Source: Burkholderia sp. Nafp2/4-1b (lineage in GTDB: Bacteria; Pseudomonadota; Gammaproteobacteria; Burkholderiales; Burkholderiaceae). From it: 64,000 nucleotides of DNA. The notes below the pieces were generated by a model. That model was not told the origin of the DNA and made no database searches. It worked only from the letters and a program-made list of their open reading frames with translations. The stretch spans positions 372,001-436,000 of the forward strand of contig NZ_ML058616.1 in NCBI RefSeq assembly GCF_003635165.1, given 5' to 3'. Made by a program: the position numbers and the translations under genes. Positions 194-52,462 of this stretch are shown piece by piece (position 1 is the stretch's first letter; every line of letters starts with the position of its first letter).

Positions 194-2482
194 ATGACCG
201 AATTCAACGACACCCAACAGCAGCTCTCGAAGTTCCGCCTGCGCGTCGCGGCGGCGGGCGTGTTCGTGTTCGTCTGCTTCGGGCTGCTCGCGAGCCGCTT
301 CTTCTACCTGCAGCTGATGCAGCACGGCAAATACGCGCTGCAGGCCGAGGAAAACCGCATCTCGGTCGCGCCGATCGTGCCGAACCGCGGGATCATCACC
401 GATCGCAACGGCGTGGTGCTCGCGAAGAACTATTCGGCGTACACGCTCGAGATCACGCCGTCGAAGCTCAATGACACGCTCGACAACACGATCGACAAGC
501 TGTCCGAGATCATCCCGATCGACGCACGCGACCGCCGCCGCTTCAAGAAACTGCAGGAAGACTCGAAGAACTTCGAGAGCCTGCCGATCCGCACGCGCCT
601 GACCGACGCGGAAGTCGCGCGCTTCACCGCGCAGCGCTTTCGCTTCCCCGGCGTCGACGTGCGCGCGCGGCTGTTCCGCCAGTACCCGCTCGGCATGACG
701 GCCGCGCACGTGATCGGCTACATCGGCCGGATCTCGAAGCGCGACCAGGATCGCATCGACGCGATGAGCGACGACAACGACAGCGATCAGGAACACTACG
801 ATCCGCGCCGCGACGCGAACAACTACAAGGGCACCGACTACATCGGCAAGATCGGCGTCGAGCAGAGCTACGAAGCCGAGCTGCATGGCCTCACGGGCTT
901 CGAGGAAGTCGAGGTGACGGCCGGCGGCCGGCCGGTGCGCACGCTGTCGCGCACGCAGGCGACGCCCGGCAACAACCTCGTGCTGTCGCTCGACATCGGG
1001 CTGCAGCAGGTGGCCGAACAAGCGTTCGCCGGCAAGCGCGGCGCGCTCGTCGCGATCGAGCCGAAGACGGGCGACGTGCTCGCGTTCGTGTCGTCGCCGA
1101 GCTTCGACCCGAACTCGTTCGTCGACGGGATCGACCAGCAGACTTGGGACGAGCTGAACAACTCGTCCGACAAGCCGCTCCTGAACCGCCCGCTGCACGG
1201 CACCTACCCGCCCGGCTCGACCTACAAGCCGTTCATGGCGCTGGCCGGCCTGACGCTCGGCAAGCGCACGCCGGGCTGGGGCTTCCAGGATCCCGGCTAC
1301 TTCACGTTCGGCGGCCACACGTTCCGCAACGACGTGCGCTCGGGCCAGGGCTGGGTCGACATGAACAAGGCGATCATGGTGTCGAACGACACCTACTTCT
1401 ACATGCTCGCGCGCGACCTCGGCGTGAATGCGATCGCGAATTTCATGAAGCCGTTCGGCTTCGGCCAGATCACCGGGATCGACATCCAGGGCGAGGCGCG
1501 CGGGATCCTGCCGTCGACCGACTGGAAGAAGAAGGCGTTCAAGAAGGCCGCGCAGCAGAAGTGGTTCGACGGCGAGACGATCAGCCTCGGGATCGGCCAG
1601 GGCTACAACTCGTTCACGATCCTGCAGCTCGCGCATGCGACGGCAACGCTCGCGAACAACGGCGTCGTGATGAAGCCTCACCTCGTGAAGGAAGTCGAGG
1701 ATCCGATCACGCGCGCGCGCCACCTGACGGTGCCGAAGGAAAGCGAAGTGATCCCGCTCAAGCAGTCCGACATCGACGTCGTGAAGCGCGGGATGGAAAA
1801 CGTGATCGAAAACCCGTCCGGCACCGCGTACACCGTGTTCCGCGGCGCGTCGTACCTCGCGGCCGGCAAGACCGGTACCGCGCAGGTGTTCTCGCTGCAG
1901 GGCTCGAACTACAAGGGCCACCTGCTCGCCGAGCACCTGCGCGACCACGCACTGTTCATTTCGTACGCGCCGGTCGACCATCCGCAGATCGCCGTCGCGC
2001 TGGTCGTCGAGAACGGCGGCTGGGGCGCACAGGCCGCGGGCCCGATTGCGCGCCGCGTGCTCGATTACTATCTGGTCGAACGCCAGAACCCGAAGAGCGA
2101 GGCCGCGGCCGTGGCGGCCGCCGCGTCGGCGACCGAGCCGGTCAGCGCGCCGGTGGTCGGTGACACGTCGAAGCCCGCCGCCGTCGCGGCCGGCTTCACC
2201 GCGCTGCCGCAGCCGGTCGTGCAGAACGCGGCGAGCGCGGCGGACGCTGCGTCGGCCGCGTCGGCTGCGTCGGCGCCCGCTACGGCGAGCGCAATCTCGT
2301 CAAACACGCCGGCCGACGCGAGCGCCGCGCCGCCGATGGCCGCGAGCCTGCCGCCGATCCGGCGCCCGCACCGGCCGCGCCGGCCCGCCAGCGACGCGCA
2401 GCCGCTCGCCACCGCGCCGCGCGACGACAACTTCCGTGCGTCGGCCCCCGCGAAAGCGGCGAACGCCGGCACGATTCATTAA
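194..2482 (+). CDS. mrdA: Penicillin-binding protein 2 (MrdA), peptidoglycan D,D-transpeptidase
   Basis: Class B penicillin-binding protein that cross-links peptidoglycan during cell elongation; it is the partner of RodA just downstream. One N-terminal membrane anchor is seen around residues 20-40, followed by the PBP dimerisation domain and the transpeptidase. The three active-site motifs are present: STYK with Ser342, SND with Ser397, and KTG with Lys559. At 762 residues it is longer than the E. coli protein (about 630). The excess is an Ala/Ser/Pro-rich, low-complexity C-terminal tail after about residue 640. The ATG at 194 is preferred over one 36 bases upstream because MTEFND begins the usual short cytoplasmic segment before the anchor. 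Confidence 0.95.
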   Translation: MTEFNDTQQQLSKFRLRVAAAGVFVFVCFGLLASRFFYLQLMQHGKYALQAEENRISVAPIVPNRGIITDRNGVVLAKNYSAYTLEITPSKLNDTLDNTIDKLSEIIPIDARDRRRFKKLQEDSKNFESLPIRTRLTDAEVARFTAQRFRFPGVDVRARLFRQYPLGMTAAHVIGYIGRISKRDQDRIDAMSDDNDSDQEHYDPRRDANNYKGTDYIGKIGVEQSYEAELHGLTGFEEVEVTAGGRPVRTLSRTQATPGNNLVLSLDIGLQQVAEQAFAGKRGALVAIEPKTGDVLAFVSSPSFDPNSFVDGIDQQTWDELNNSSDKPLLNRPLHGTYPPGSTYKPFMALAGLTLGKRTPGWGFQDPGYFTFGGHTFRNDVRSGQGWVDMNKAIMVSNDTYFYMLARDLGVNAIANFMKPFGFGQITGIDIQGEARGILPSTDWKKKAFKKAAQQKWFDGETISLGIGQGYNSFTILQLAHATATLANNGVVMKPHLVKEVEDPITRARHLTVPKESEVIPLKQSDIDVVKRGMENVIENPSGTAYTVFRGASYLAAGKTGTAQVFSLQGSNYKGHLLAEHLRDHALFISYAPVDHPQIAVALVVENGGWGAQAAGPIARRVLDYYLVERQNPKSEAAAVAAAASATEPVSAPVVGDTSKPAAVAAGFTALPQPVVQNAASAADAASAASAASAPATASAISSNTPADASAAPPMAASLPPIRRPHRPRRPASDAQPLATAPRDDNFRASAPAKAANAGTIH

Positions 2483-49521: not shown

Positions 49522-50496
49522 TCATCCGCCGCGCGCGCCGCCGGCCCGGTCCGCCACGTCGTTCCACAGATGCAGCGCCGCGTACGCGCGCCACGGCCGC
49601 CAGCCTTCGGTGCGGCGCTTCTGGCTCGCGAGCCGGTCGAGCGACGGATCGCGCGCGGTGATCGACTGCATCAGCACGAGATCGGACGCCGGCCACGCGT
49701 CGGGGTCGCGCCACGCACGCATCGCGATGTATTCGACGGTCCACGGGCCGATGCCGGGCAGATCGAGCCATGCGCTGCGCAGTGTCGCGAGATCGGCGTG
49801 CGCCGGATCGAGCGGCACGTGACCGGCCGCCACCGCGCGCGCCATGCCCGTCAGCGCGGCGGCCCGCTTGCCGGGCATCCCGATCTTCTCGAGATCGCAT
49901 GCGGCGAGCGCGTCCGGCGTCGGGAAACGCCACGCGGGGGCCCCATCCGGCGCCGGCATGTCGTCGCCGTGCACGACGCGCTCGCCTGCGCGCTGGACGA
50001 GCCGGCCGACGATCGTCGTCGCCGCCTTCACGCTCACCTGCTGACCCACGATCGCACGCACCGCCAGCTCGAATCCCGACCAGGCGCCCGGCACACGCAG
50101 CCCCGGCGCGGCTTCGACGAGCGGCGCGAACCACGGATCGCGCGCGAGCCCGCCGCCGATCGCGGCCGGATCCGCGCCGAGGTCGAACATCGACGCGACG
50201 CGGCGCGCGAACGCATCGTCGACGTGACGCGCGGCCGCGCCTTCGACGGTGGCGATCAGGCAATGCCGGCGCGGATGCTTCGTGACGGTAAGCCGGCCCG
50301 CGTCGCCGTTCAGGTCGACGATGCGGCGATACGCGCCGTCCGCGACCTGCTCGACGCCCGGAATCGCCCGGCCGCTGAAGAAACGCAGCACGCGCGCCCA
50401 GTCGTACGGCGCCTTGAAGCGCAGCTCCATCTGCGCGGACGGCGGCACGCGGCCGCCGTCTTCGATCGACGTGATCTCGGTGTTATCGATGCTCAA
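49522..50496 (-). CDS. alkA: DNA-3-methyladenine glycosylase II (AlkA-type)
   Basis: Base-excision glycosylase of 324 residues that removes alkylated purines. The AlkA N-terminal domain (about 20-130) is followed by the helix-hairpin-helix glycosylase domain. The hairpin is LPGIGPWTVEYIAMR, with the catalytic Asp shortly after in PASDLVLM. Its start overlaps the ada stop by four bases, so the pair form one alkylation-repair operon. Confidence 0.9.
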   Translation of the reverse strand: MSIDNTEITSIEDGGRVPPSAQMELRFKAPYDWARVLRFFSGRAIPGVEQVADGAYRRIVDLNGDAGRLTVTKHPRRHCLIATVEGAAARHVDDAFARRVASMFDLGADPAAIGGGLARDPWFAPLVEAAPGLRVPGAWSGFELAVRAIVGQQVSVKAATTIVGRLVQRAGERVVHGDDMPAPDGAPAWRFPTPDALAACDLEKIGMPGKRAAALTGMARAVAAGHVPLDPAHADLATLRSAWLDLPGIGPWTVEYIAMRAWRDPDAWPASDLVLMQSITARDPSLDRLASQKRRTEGWRPWRAYAALHLWNDVADRAGGARGG

Positions 50497-51584
50497 ACTG
50501 CGTTGCCCTCCGCAACGGCTTCGGTTTCATCGTCGCGCACATGACGCGCCTCGGACGCGAGCAGCGTCGCCTTGCGCCGCACGCCCCAGCGATAGCCGGC
50601 CAGCGCGCCGCCCTTCTGCACGACACGGTGGCACGGAATGGCGAGTGCGACCGGGTTCGAGGCGCACGCCGATGCGACGGCCCGCACCGCACGCGGCGAG
50701 CCGAGCGCCTCGGCGATCTCCGAGTAGCTGCGCGTTTCGCCGTACGGGATGTGCGTGAGCGCTTCCCACACCCGCTGCTGGAACGCGGTCGGCGCGATGT
50801 CGAGCGGCAGGTCGAACGCGTGCCGCGTTCCGTCCAGGTACGCGTGGATCTGCGCGACGAACGGCGCGAGCCGCGACGGCGCTTCAACCAGCTCGGCGCG
50901 CGCGAACGCATCCTTCAGCTCGTCGACCAGCACCGACGGTGCGTCGCCGAACGCGATCCGGCAGATGCCCTGTCCGGTCGCGGCGACGAGCACCGCGCCG
51001 AGCGGTGTCGCTGCGGTCGCATAGTCGATCCGCAGGCCGGCGCCCTGGCGACGGAACGCGGACGGCGCCATCCCCAGCTCGCGCGGCACCGATGCATAGA
51101 GCCGCGACGGCGAATTGAACCCGGCGTCGACGGCCGCTTGCGTGACCGGCTGCCCGCTTTGCAGCGCGTCGCGCAAGGCGGCGCCGCGCTGCGCGGCCTG
51201 GTACTGCCGCGGCGACACGCCGACCACTCGTTTGAACAGCCGCTGCAGATGGAACGGGCTCACGTGCACGGCATCGCTCAGCTGCTGCAGCGTGAGCCGC
51301 TCCGAATGCGCATCGAGCACCGCGCACGCGCGATTGACGATCTCGAGCTCGCGCGGCAGTCCTTCCGGCTGACAGCGCTTGCACGGGCGGAAGCCGGCCG
51401 CGCGCGCGTCGGCCGGACTGGCGAAGAAGGACACATGCTCGCGCCGCGGCAGCCGCGACGCGCAGCTCGGGCGGCAGAACACGCCGGTCGTGCGCACGGC
51501 ATAGAAGAACGCGCCGTCCGCATGCTGATCGCGGGCGGTCACGGCGCCCCAGCGGGCATCGTCGGTCGGATAGGGGGTTTTCAT
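50493..51584 (-). CDS. ada: Ada, bifunctional alkylation-response regulator and O6-methylguanine-DNA methyltransferase
   Basis: A 363-residue protein with three parts. The N-terminal zinc/methyl-acceptor domain (FFYAVRTTGVFCRPSCASR, with further cysteines in FRPCKRCQPEG) takes methyl groups from phosphotriesters. An AraC-type DNA-binding domain follows (about 100-185). The C-terminal methyltransferase has the acceptor cysteine in IPCHRVVQ. In E. coli, methylated Ada activates ada and alkA; the overlapping gene order here fits the same logic. The start MKTPYPTDDARW at 51584 is preferred over frame extensions upstream. Confidence 0.93.
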   Translation of the reverse strand: MKTPYPTDDARWGAVTARDQHADGAFFYAVRTTGVFCRPSCASRLPRREHVSFFASPADARAAGFRPCKRCQPEGLPRELEIVNRACAVLDAHSERLTLQQLSDAVHVSPFHLQRLFKRVVGVSPRQYQAAQRGAALRDALQSGQPVTQAAVDAGFNSPSRLYASVPRELGMAPSAFRRQGAGLRIDYATAATPLGAVLVAATGQGICRIAFGDAPSVLVDELKDAFARAELVEAPSRLAPFVAQIHAYLDGTRHAFDLPLDIAPTAFQQRVWEALTHIPYGETRSYSEIAEALGSPRAVRAVASACASNPVALAIPCHRVVQKGGALAGYRWGVRRKATLLASEARHVRDDETEAVAEGNAV

Positions 51585-51860
51585 CTGAACCTCGCACTCT
51601 CTAGTGTAGATGGTGCCTACTCTAGCCATCGGCATGGGCCGTCGCGCCCTGATTCTTGCTCTGTGATTCGGGCCGCCGATATCGCGACATCGCGGGGACA
51701 CATCGCGGGCGCGCACCGAAATCGCGCATGAAATCGATCAATCTGACGAAAATCCACGCGAGCGCTGCGGGAACGCCGTTTTCGCCATCATTGCGTCACC
51801 GTTTTGCTGCAGTGCGGCTGCGACCAATCGCCGTCCTGACCATTTTTTACACTCGGAATA
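51585..51860. other. Upstream region of ada
   Basis: About 275 bases, AT-richer towards the right. It should contain the ada promoter on the minus strand. No E. coli-like Ada box was confirmed. The only strong element nearby is the opposite-strand promoter of the small-RNA candidate. Confidence 0.35.
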
Positions 51861-51889
51861 TTGCAACGCACCATCGCCGTGTGTATAGT
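51861..51889 (+). promoter_or_regulatory. Sigma-70-type promoter of candidate small RNA
   Basis: TTGCAA (51861-51866) and TATAGT (51884-51889) are separated by exactly 17 bases. Each matches the consensus at five of six positions. No coding sequence starts downstream before a terminator about 40 bases on. Confidence 0.75.
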
Positions 51890-51895
51890 TGGAAC

Positions 51896-51963
51896 TGTCT
51901 CCTCCATGTCTCCTCCTGATATGGATTAAGCCCGTTCCGCTCTGCGTGAACGGGCTTTTTTTC
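51896..51963 (+). ncRNA. Candidate small RNA with two anti-Shine-Dalgarno motifs
   Basis: A predicted transcript of about 65-70 bases begins 7 or so bases after the -10 and ends at a strong intrinsic terminator. Two pyrimidine motifs, CTCCTCC (51899-51905) and CTCCTCCT (51910-51917), are complementary to ribosome-binding sites. The linker CTGATATGGATT follows before the terminator stem. There is no credible open reading frame. Similar CCUCCUCC-type motifs define the alphaproteobacterial 'cuckoo' RNAs; a Burkholderia relative is likely, but the name and homology cannot be checked here. The exact 5' end is inferred. Confidence 0.65.
51928..51963 (+). terminator. Terminator of the small-RNA candidate
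   Basis: AAGCCCGTTC (51928-51937) pairs perfectly with GAACGGGCTT (51948-51957) around a 10-base loop and is followed by a run of T. Confidence 0.9.
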
Positions 51964-52048: not shown

Positions 52049-52462
52049 ATGAAACCGACCATCCGCGCGATCGATCACGTCGTGCTGCGTGTGAGCGACA
52101 TGGCTGCGATGACGCGCTTTTACTGCGATGCCGTCGGCTGCCACGTCGAGAAGGAACAGCCCGATCTGGGCCTCGTGCAATTGCGCGCCGGCGACGCGCT
52201 GATCGACCTGCTGGCCGTCGGCGGCCCGATCGATCGTCCCGACAGCGGGCCGCCCGGCGCCGGACGCAACGTCGATCATTTGTGCCTGCGCGTCGAGCCG
52301 TTCGATCCCGATGCGCTGATCGAGCATTTCGCCGCATTCGGCGCGCGGCCCGAGCCGCCCGCCGAACGCTACGGCGCGGGCGGCTACGGGCCGTCGATCT
52401 ACCTGTTCGATCCCGAAAGAAACATGCTGGAATTCAAGGGGCCGCCCGCCGCGCTCGGCTGA
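52049..52462 (+). CDS. VOC-superfamily (glyoxalase/bleomycin-resistance) protein
   Basis: A 137-residue single VOC-fold domain. IRAIDHVVLRVSDMAAMTRFYCDAVGC is the standard opening, with the metal-ligand histidine in IDHVVL. A second one lies in VDHLCLRVEPFD and the glutamate in RNMLEFKGP. AAGGGAG precedes the ATG at 52049. Substrate unknown; members range from glyoxalase-like lyases to dioxygenases. Confidence 0.85.
   Translation: MKPTIRAIDHVVLRVSDMAAMTRFYCDAVGCHVEKEQPDLGLVQLRAGDALIDLLAVGGPIDRPDSGPPGAGRNVDHLCLRVEPFDPDALIEHFAAFGARPEPPAERYGAGGYGPSIYLFDPERNMLEFKGPPAALG

What the first reader, a model, noticed from the sequence alone, without database searches (positions are those of the whole stretch)
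51861..51963. Candidate small RNA carrying two anti-Shine-Dalgarno motifs, with its own promoter and terminator
Seen: TTGCAA-N17-TATAGT, then within about 30 bases CTCCTCC and CTCCTCCT spaced 11 bases apart, then a perfect 10-bp terminator stem with a T-run; no coding frame fits. Known: alphaproteobacterial 'cuckoo' RNAs use CCUCCUCC-type motifs to block ribosome-binding sites, and stress-linked sRNAs exist in Burkholderia. Inference: a short (about 65-70 nt) RNA that titrates or masks ribosome sites of several mRNAs, adjacent to the alkylation-repair operon. The twin motif and compact size are the unusual part.
Basis: partly seen in the sequence, partly recalled or inferred. Interest (0 to 1): 0.75.

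Follow-up and report, generated by a model that had tools for sequence, protein, structure and literature searches.

The report
Known Burkholderia ribosome-site-blocking small RNA
This is an ordinary copy of an already described family of very short bacterial RNAs thought to stick to the ribosome-landing sites of messages for nutrient uptake and breakdown; its counterpart in a close relative was detected years ago and named ncS05.

Summary
Window 51896-51963 (+) matches Rfam RF02278 (Betaproteobacteria_toxic_sRNA) over its full length at 75.8 bits, gathering score 50. The own genome holds four copies above that score; 36 of 36 same-genus genomes searched carry 4-7 matches at E<=0.001. Synteny and spacing identify this copy as the orthologue of B. 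cenocepacia ncS05, a published 'double-hairpin RNA' (PMC4603805, PMC5688073). The 31-nt core with both anti-Shine-Dalgarno motifs is identical in 79 of 80 ada loci of Burkholderia and Paraburkholderia; the 80th contig ends too soon. Its hairpins covary. The complement of its 5' end, GGAGGAGACA, occurs 24 times in the genome (reversed control: 2); excluding 5 sites in the sRNA genes, 17 of 19 lie just before start codons (random positions: 629 of 4000), mostly of transport, catabolic and regulator genes. This fits masking of ribosome-binding sites, as shown for the relative S17. Nothing found links it to alkylation repair beyond stable gene order.

The parts
51861..51889 (+). Promoter: -35-like TTGCAA, 17-nt spacer, -10 TATAGT; lies in an upstream block (consensus TATTGCgtCGCAcCA ... 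TGTGTATA.T) conserved across 79 orthologues
   Evidence: 5' end of the orthologue ncS05 detected by dRNA-seq (PMC4603805, PMC5688073 passages)
51896..51963 (+). RF02278 small RNA, orthologue of B. cenocepacia ncS05 (about 67 nt)
   Evidence: 75.8 bits, gathering 50; synteny and spacing
51896..51905 (+). Site 1: 5' anti-Shine-Dalgarno UGUCUCCUCC, first 7 of 10 nt unpaired in the predicted fold; best conserved part across the copies above threshold
51910..51917 (+). Site 2: CUCCUCCU, 7 of 8 nt in the loop of hairpin 1; invariant in the 79 orthologues, degenerate in paralogues C12 and C1
51903..51925 (+). Hairpin 1 (8 bp, 7-nt loop)
51928..51962 (+). Hairpin 2: intrinsic terminator, 10-bp stem with bulged upper stem, then a T-run
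50493..51584 (-). ada (divergent neighbour; stable synteny, not shown to be functionally linked; ATG at 51584, searches used 51587)
52049..52462 (+). Glyoxalase/VOC-family gene downstream (stable synteny)

Best explanation
A trans-acting small RNA of family RF02278 (double-hairpin RNA, 'toxic small RNA'), orthologous to B. cenocepacia ncS05. Shown by sequence: a conserved promoter directly upstream, a largely single-stranded 5' UGUCUCCUCC, a hairpin that presents a second CUCCUCCU in its loop, and a terminator hairpin with a U-tail. Inferred from relatives and from complementarity: Site 1 (helped by Site 2) pairs with the Shine-Dalgarno-to-start region (GGAGGAGACA type) of many mRNAs for nutrient uptake, catabolism and their regulators, and blocks ribosome entry. 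Together with three paralogues it lowers uptake and breakdown of substrates when growth slows, in biofilm or in glucose medium. Help by Hfq is likely (reported for Bordetella S17) but untested here.
For: Full-length Rfam match far above threshold. Four copies above threshold in the genome. Core 31 nt identical in 79 of 80 ada loci, while mean column identity beyond -60 upstream is 0.40-0.59. Covariation: 9 of 16 pairs with two-sided changes, 98.8% of cells paired; 0 of 500 shuffles reach four of the five measures and 1 of 500 the fifth (the alignment was fitted to the model and includes three sub-threshold copies and one spurious partial row). GGAGGAGACA: 24 genomic sites against 2 for the reversed pattern; 17 of the 19 outside the sRNA genes lie 9-15 nt (motif start to start codon) before an ORF of at least 76 aa, against 629 of 4000 random window positions by the same rule; counting ATG only, 16 of 19 against 185 of 4000. 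Pfam: four MFS transporters, lactate permease, Na+:dicarboxylate symporter, solute-binding protein, OmpW, acyl-CoA dehydrogenase, CoA-transferase, LysR and sigma-54 regulators and others. Literature (passages): ncS05 is 67 nt, RF02278, lies between BCAL0436 and BCAL0437 in the same gene orientation, up 3.5x in biofilm and 6.9x in glucose medium; overexpressed paralogue ncS27 attenuates growth (PMC4603805, PMC5688073). S17: 70 of 91 genes (92 in the abstract) raised in its deletion strain have complementarity near the RBS, and compensatory mutations restored regulation of BP2158 (PMC11722255).
Against: No RNA or protein data for this strain. Many RBSs may resemble GGAGGAGACA regardless of the RNA, so the enrichment shows that the RNA can mask RBSs, not that these 17 genes are its real targets; the reversed pattern and random positions are not controls for that. 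Only one 10-mer was scanned, so weaker targets are not counted. Two of the 17 leaders (L163, L168) score just short of the best 1% of random 50-mers. The paralogues share the seed, so this copy may have little effect alone. S17 overexpression only modestly impaired E. coli growth, on entry into stationary phase, so the 'toxic' label is not general.
Confidence: 0.93

Rival explanations
1. A small RNA of the ada/alkylation stress response, co-controlled with or acting on ada-alkA.
For: In 79 of 80 loci the first motif lies 219-403 nt from the Ada match, and the VOC gene follows in 77 of 80. The ada leader (-13.9 kcal/mol) scores better than the random median (-10.5).
Against: The loci were fetched by Ada, so presence of ada is by design. 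The RNA is divergent from ada. Duplex energies of the ada (-13.9) and alkA (-12.9) leaders do not reach the best 5% of random window 50-mers (-17.5). No Ada match within the fetched stretches of the three paralogues (about 3 kb) or of four loci from other families of the order (2.1-2.5 kb). Published qPCR inducers of ncS05 are biofilm, stationary phase, starvation, glucose medium and osmotic stress; alkylation was not among the conditions seen.
Confidence: 0.03
2. A member of the alphaproteobacterial cuckoo/alpha-r14 family.
For: Same principle: repeated anti-SD motifs in unpaired regions, transport mRNAs as predicted targets (PMC10746234 passage).
Against: Alpha-r14 RNAs have three hairpins each with CCUCCUCCC; here there are two hairpins and CUCCUCC, with no CCUCCUCCC. 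None of the 14 Rfam matches at E<=10 is named cuckoo or ar14; whether Rfam holds such a model was not checked.
Confidence: 0.01
3. A leader, attenuator or small peptide gene rather than a trans-acting RNA.
For: An ATG frame of 7 codons lies inside the RNA. The Bordetella precursor S17L holds a putative 32-residue frame.
Against: The frame's end is not conserved (stops after MSPPDMD in 32 of 79, other ends in 47), the sequence before the ATG is anti-SD rather than SD, a terminator follows directly, and the three paralogues are not beside ada or the VOC gene.
Confidence: 0.02

Closest known systems
Rfam RF02278 Betaproteobacteria_toxic_sRNA; B. cenocepacia ncS03, ncS05, ncS27, ncS62 ('double-hairpin RNAs')
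   Same: Sequence family, length, two hairpins, both CU-rich sites, gene neighbourhood (ncS05)
   Different: Only a different strain or species; the 31-nt core is the same in the B. cenocepacia locus L070
Bordetella pertussis S17 (S17S, 67 nt)
   Same: Conserved 5' region with two single-stranded CU-rich sites that pair with RBSs
   Different: S17S is cut from a 190-nt precursor by RNase E; this RNA has a conserved promoter directly upstream (PMC11722255 passages)
Neisseria NmsRA/NmsRB (RF02877)
   Same: Two anti-SD sites, one between stems and one in a loop, acting on metabolic mRNAs; an order relative (L156) matches RF02278 (59.5 bits) and NmsRb (41.4 bits, below its 52) at one place
   Different: Three stem-loops, tandem pair, TCA-cycle targets (PMC5362039 passages); the window scores 22.8 bits on NmsRb
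Burkholderia anti-hemB RNA (RF02837, ncS04)
   Same: Similar first hairpin with a CU-rich loop (alignment)
   Different: Window scores 25.5 against a gathering score of 49.5
Alphaproteobacterial cuckoo/alpha-r14 RNAs (NfeR1)
   Same: Principle of repeated anti-SD motifs
   Different: Three hairpins with CCUCCUCCC; other class of bacteria (PMC10746234 passage)

Membership tests
RF02278 | Covariance-model score at or above 50 bits over the model | tested here: met
   75.8 bits, model 1-64 of 64
RF02278 | Two hairpins with CU-rich anti-SD in 5' end and first loop | tested here: met
   definition from PMC5688073 passages
RF02278 | Inhibits growth when expressed in E. coli | not testable with these tools
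   Described for the family in PMC4603805 and PMC5688073 passages; the original paper is not held
ncS05 orthologue | Same orientation among neighbours as between BCAL0436 and BCAL0437, and 258126 nt from ncS03 in J2315 | tested here: met
   Contig G003:C9 (379426 bases, same length as the B. cenocepacia NCTC13227 record of L070) has a second copy and the ada-adjacent copy 258127 nt apart, strands + and - as in J2315. J2315 itself was not read, and that BCAL0436/0437 are VOC and ada is inferred from orientation and spacing.
Cuckoo / alpha-r14 RNA | Three hairpins each carrying CCUCCUCCC | tested here: not met
   Two hairpins, CUCCUCC twice; definition
NmsR (RF02877) | Covariance-model score at or above 52 bits | tested here: not met
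   22.8 bits
anti-hemB (RF02837) | Covariance-model score at or above 49.5 bits | tested here: not met
   25.5 bits

The most novel reading that the evidence does not exclude
RF02278, S17, NmsR, anti-hemB and further unnamed Burkholderia copies (such as the conserved CACCUCCUU-bearing element at G000:C28:215131-215183) are one betaproteobacterial superfamily of ribosome-binding-site mimics whose members diverged in seed and promoter, so that paralogues share out different sets of translation starts.
Probability: 0.25. Interest if true: 0.4.

Novelty: already known. Interest (0 to 1): 0.15.

Why it matters
It does not add a new RNA. The deep invariance of the 31-nt core and the match of its complement to start sites of transport and catabolism genes make target sharing among the four paralogues easy to test.

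Tried and rejected
Link to ada/alkylation: tested by leader duplex energies and by looking for Ada beside other copies; not supported. Peptide: rejected by the non-conserved frame end. Neighbouring VOC and yaeQ leaders as targets: weak duplexes (-9.9, -12.4; random median -10.5). These duplex energies use RNA nt 1-24 and 50-nt leaders and ignore folding within each strand. First paralogue alignment A1 was useless because four of six rows were in the wrong orientation; replaced by A3, A4 and A5. The terminator scanner found nothing. Covariation within orthologues alone is thin (2 of 16 pairs with a two-sided change), because hairpin 1 never varies there. Of 79 orthologues, 33 distinct sequences entered A2 together with the window. 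A4 left out the weak copies L010 and L011, whose 5' motif is altered. A5 searched 20 chosen loci and kept a spurious partial opposite-strand row. Of the 20 stretches taken only L152-L156 entered an analysis. At E<=10 the own genome gave 22 RF02278 matches, 18 of them below the cut-off, and 13 of 14 control genomes also gave some at that setting, so the weakest are taken as chance. The original paper on the toxic RNAs (PMC3317161) is not held; the 2019 ncS27 paper was seen only through a review passage and reference lists. Papers were seen as search listings and passages, none in full. Six paper searches were made.

Full report
Observation. The motif pair is rare by chance (mean 0.01 in shuffles of the 64 kb), and the RNA folds far better than shuffles (z = -9.85). 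The simple terminator scan missed the terminator.

Identity. cmscan gives RF02278 over 51896-51963 at 75.8 bits, E = 4.9e-15 in a 2-kb stretch, and as the only match besides two tRNAs above gathering score in the whole window. Weaker overlapping matches to anti-hemB (25.5 bits) and NmsRb (22.8 bits) are below their gathering scores.

Copies and spread. The own genome has four copies above 50 bits and 18 matches below it at E<=10, the best at 42.5, 32.2 and 28.6 bits; 13 of 14 control genomes also give matches at that lax setting, none above the cut-off. In 61 genomes including the own, 51 have a match at E<=0.001 and 44 exceed the cut-off; all 36 same-genus relatives match (4-7 each), as do 14 of 24 from other families of the order. 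In a class-wide draw of 185 genomes, 44 have a match at E<=0.0001 but only 2 exceed the cut-off, the own genome and one of the same order (stricter filters). So strong members are centred on the order Burkholderiales (inference).

Orthology. Eighty Burkholderia and Paraburkholderia loci with record titles were fetched with the neighbouring Ada protein (the best 80 of 380 kept by the tool). In 79 of 80 the RNA lies divergent from ada, its first motif 219-403 nt from the Ada match, with an identical 31-nt core; in L067 the contig ends 90 nt before ada. The VOC gene follows on the same strand in 77 of 80; L067 and L126 are cut by contig ends, L096 is not and lacks it. In J2315, ncS05 lies on the minus strand between BCAL0436 (minus) and BCAL0437 (plus), 258126 nt from ncS03 (PMC4603805 Table 3). 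In G003:C9, a contig of the same length as the B. cenocepacia NCTC13227 record of L070, two copies with the same strands are 258127 nt apart, and the right-hand one is the ada-adjacent copy. The window copy is therefore the ncS05 orthologue.

Anatomy. Of the 5' UGUCUCCUCC, seven nt are unpaired; hairpin 1 shows CUCCUCCU in its loop; hairpin 2 is the terminator. Within orthologues all of hairpin 1 is invariant. Across paralogues and order relatives, 9 of 16 pairs show changes on both sides and 98.8% of cells pair; 0 of 500 shuffles reach four of the five measures, 1 of 500 the fifth, and the slid structures stay far below (alignment fitted to the model). Site 1 (GUCUCCUCCA) is invariant in the 13 sequences of A4, which left out the weak copies L010 and L011, whereas Site 2 is shortened or altered in several. 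The twin motif is therefore not strictly kept by the family. Upstream, mean column identity is 0.85-0.88 from -40 to -11, 0.77 in the last 10 nt, 0.69-0.73 from -60 to -41 and 0.40-0.59 beyond, so the promoter region is probably under selection; the block TATTGCgtCGCAcCA over the -35 region may be a regulator site (inference).

Mechanism. GGAGGAGACA, the complement of Site 1, occurs 24 times in the genome, the reversed pattern twice. Five sites are the antisense strands of the four sRNA genes. Of the other 19, 17 precede a start codon at 9-15 nt (from the motif start) with an ORF of at least 76 aa, 16 of them with ATG; two do not (L167, L180). Random window positions meet the same rule in 629 of 4000 cases, and in 185 of 4000 with ATG only. 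Sixteen of these 17 ORFs have Pfam matches: MFS transporters (4), lactate permease, dicarboxylate symporter, solute-binding protein, OmpW, DUF3311, LysR regulator, sigma-54 activator, fatty acid hydroxylase, acyl-CoA dehydrogenase, CoA-transferase, ParA-like ATPase, and an FAD oxidoreductase with an ETF-QO segment; L170 has none. Duplex energies for the 17 are -20.0 to -34.7 kcal/mol against a random-50-mer 5% point of -17.5 and 1% point of -20.8. [quoted passage not shown]) and with S17, which represses a sigma-54 activator. The controls do not prove specificity, because RBSs may resemble this motif anyway.

Literature (passages only). ncS03, ncS05, ncS27 and ncS62 were named double-hairpin RNAs; ncS05 is raised in biofilm (3.5x), stationary phase (2.2x), starvation (3.9x), glucose medium (6.9x) and osmotic stress (2.9x) by qPCR, with no significant change at low pH or low iron (PMC5688073). 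Reverse complements of RBSs were already marked in that paper's Figure 5 legend, and 55-80% of predicted interactions of the double-hairpin RNAs fall around gene starts. So both the RNA and the proposed mechanism are in print.

Verdict. Real, conserved, well explained by relatives, already known. Interest is low; what remains open is how near-identical seeds share targets and what controls each promoter.

Noticed in passing
L010:1495-1600 (-) = G000:C28:215131-215183 region: An intergenic element with the core GTAGTTCGTGTGACACCTCCTTGACTGGGATTC and a terminator; CACCTCCTT resembles the 16S rRNA anti-SD tail (recalled). It matches RF02278 only weakly (32.2 bits), and no other Rfam family at E<=0.05. 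Found in 18 of 18 same-genus relatives searched and 0 of 12 from other families; core identical in the 8 loci aligned, the own genome included. Lies between a solute-binding-protein gene and an MFS-transporter gene (names by eye). Possibly an unnamed RBS-mimic RNA or a leader.
   Followed up: partly
L009:1501-1569 (-) = G000:C25:25593-25661: Fifth, sub-threshold RF02278-like copy (42.5 bits, gathering 50) with only one intact CTCCTCC; found in 18 of 18 same-genus relatives searched and 0 of 12 from other families.
   Followed up: partly
L153:1061-1128 and 1439-1503 (+): A genome of another family in the order (G043) has nine RF02278 matches at E<=0.001, two of them about 380 nt apart on one strand.
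   Followed up: no
window 51860-51875 and orthologues: Conserved block TATTGCgtCGCAcCA over the -35 region contains the dyad TGCG-T-CGCA in the consensus of the orthologues; possible binding site of an unknown regulator. The window itself reads TGCAACGCA there.
   Followed up: no
L008 upstream of the RNA; L087-L135 upstream of the RNA: GGGTTTTCCCTTAAA occurs upstream of paralogue C1 in the own genome and upstream of the ada-adjacent copy in most of the Paraburkholderia loci printed, but not in the window copy.
   Followed up: no
L118: Record titled Burkholderia multivorans WS-FJ9 has an Ada only 72% identical to the window's, lower than expected for a cepacia-complex species (expectation recalled); the species label may be wrong.
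   Followed up: no
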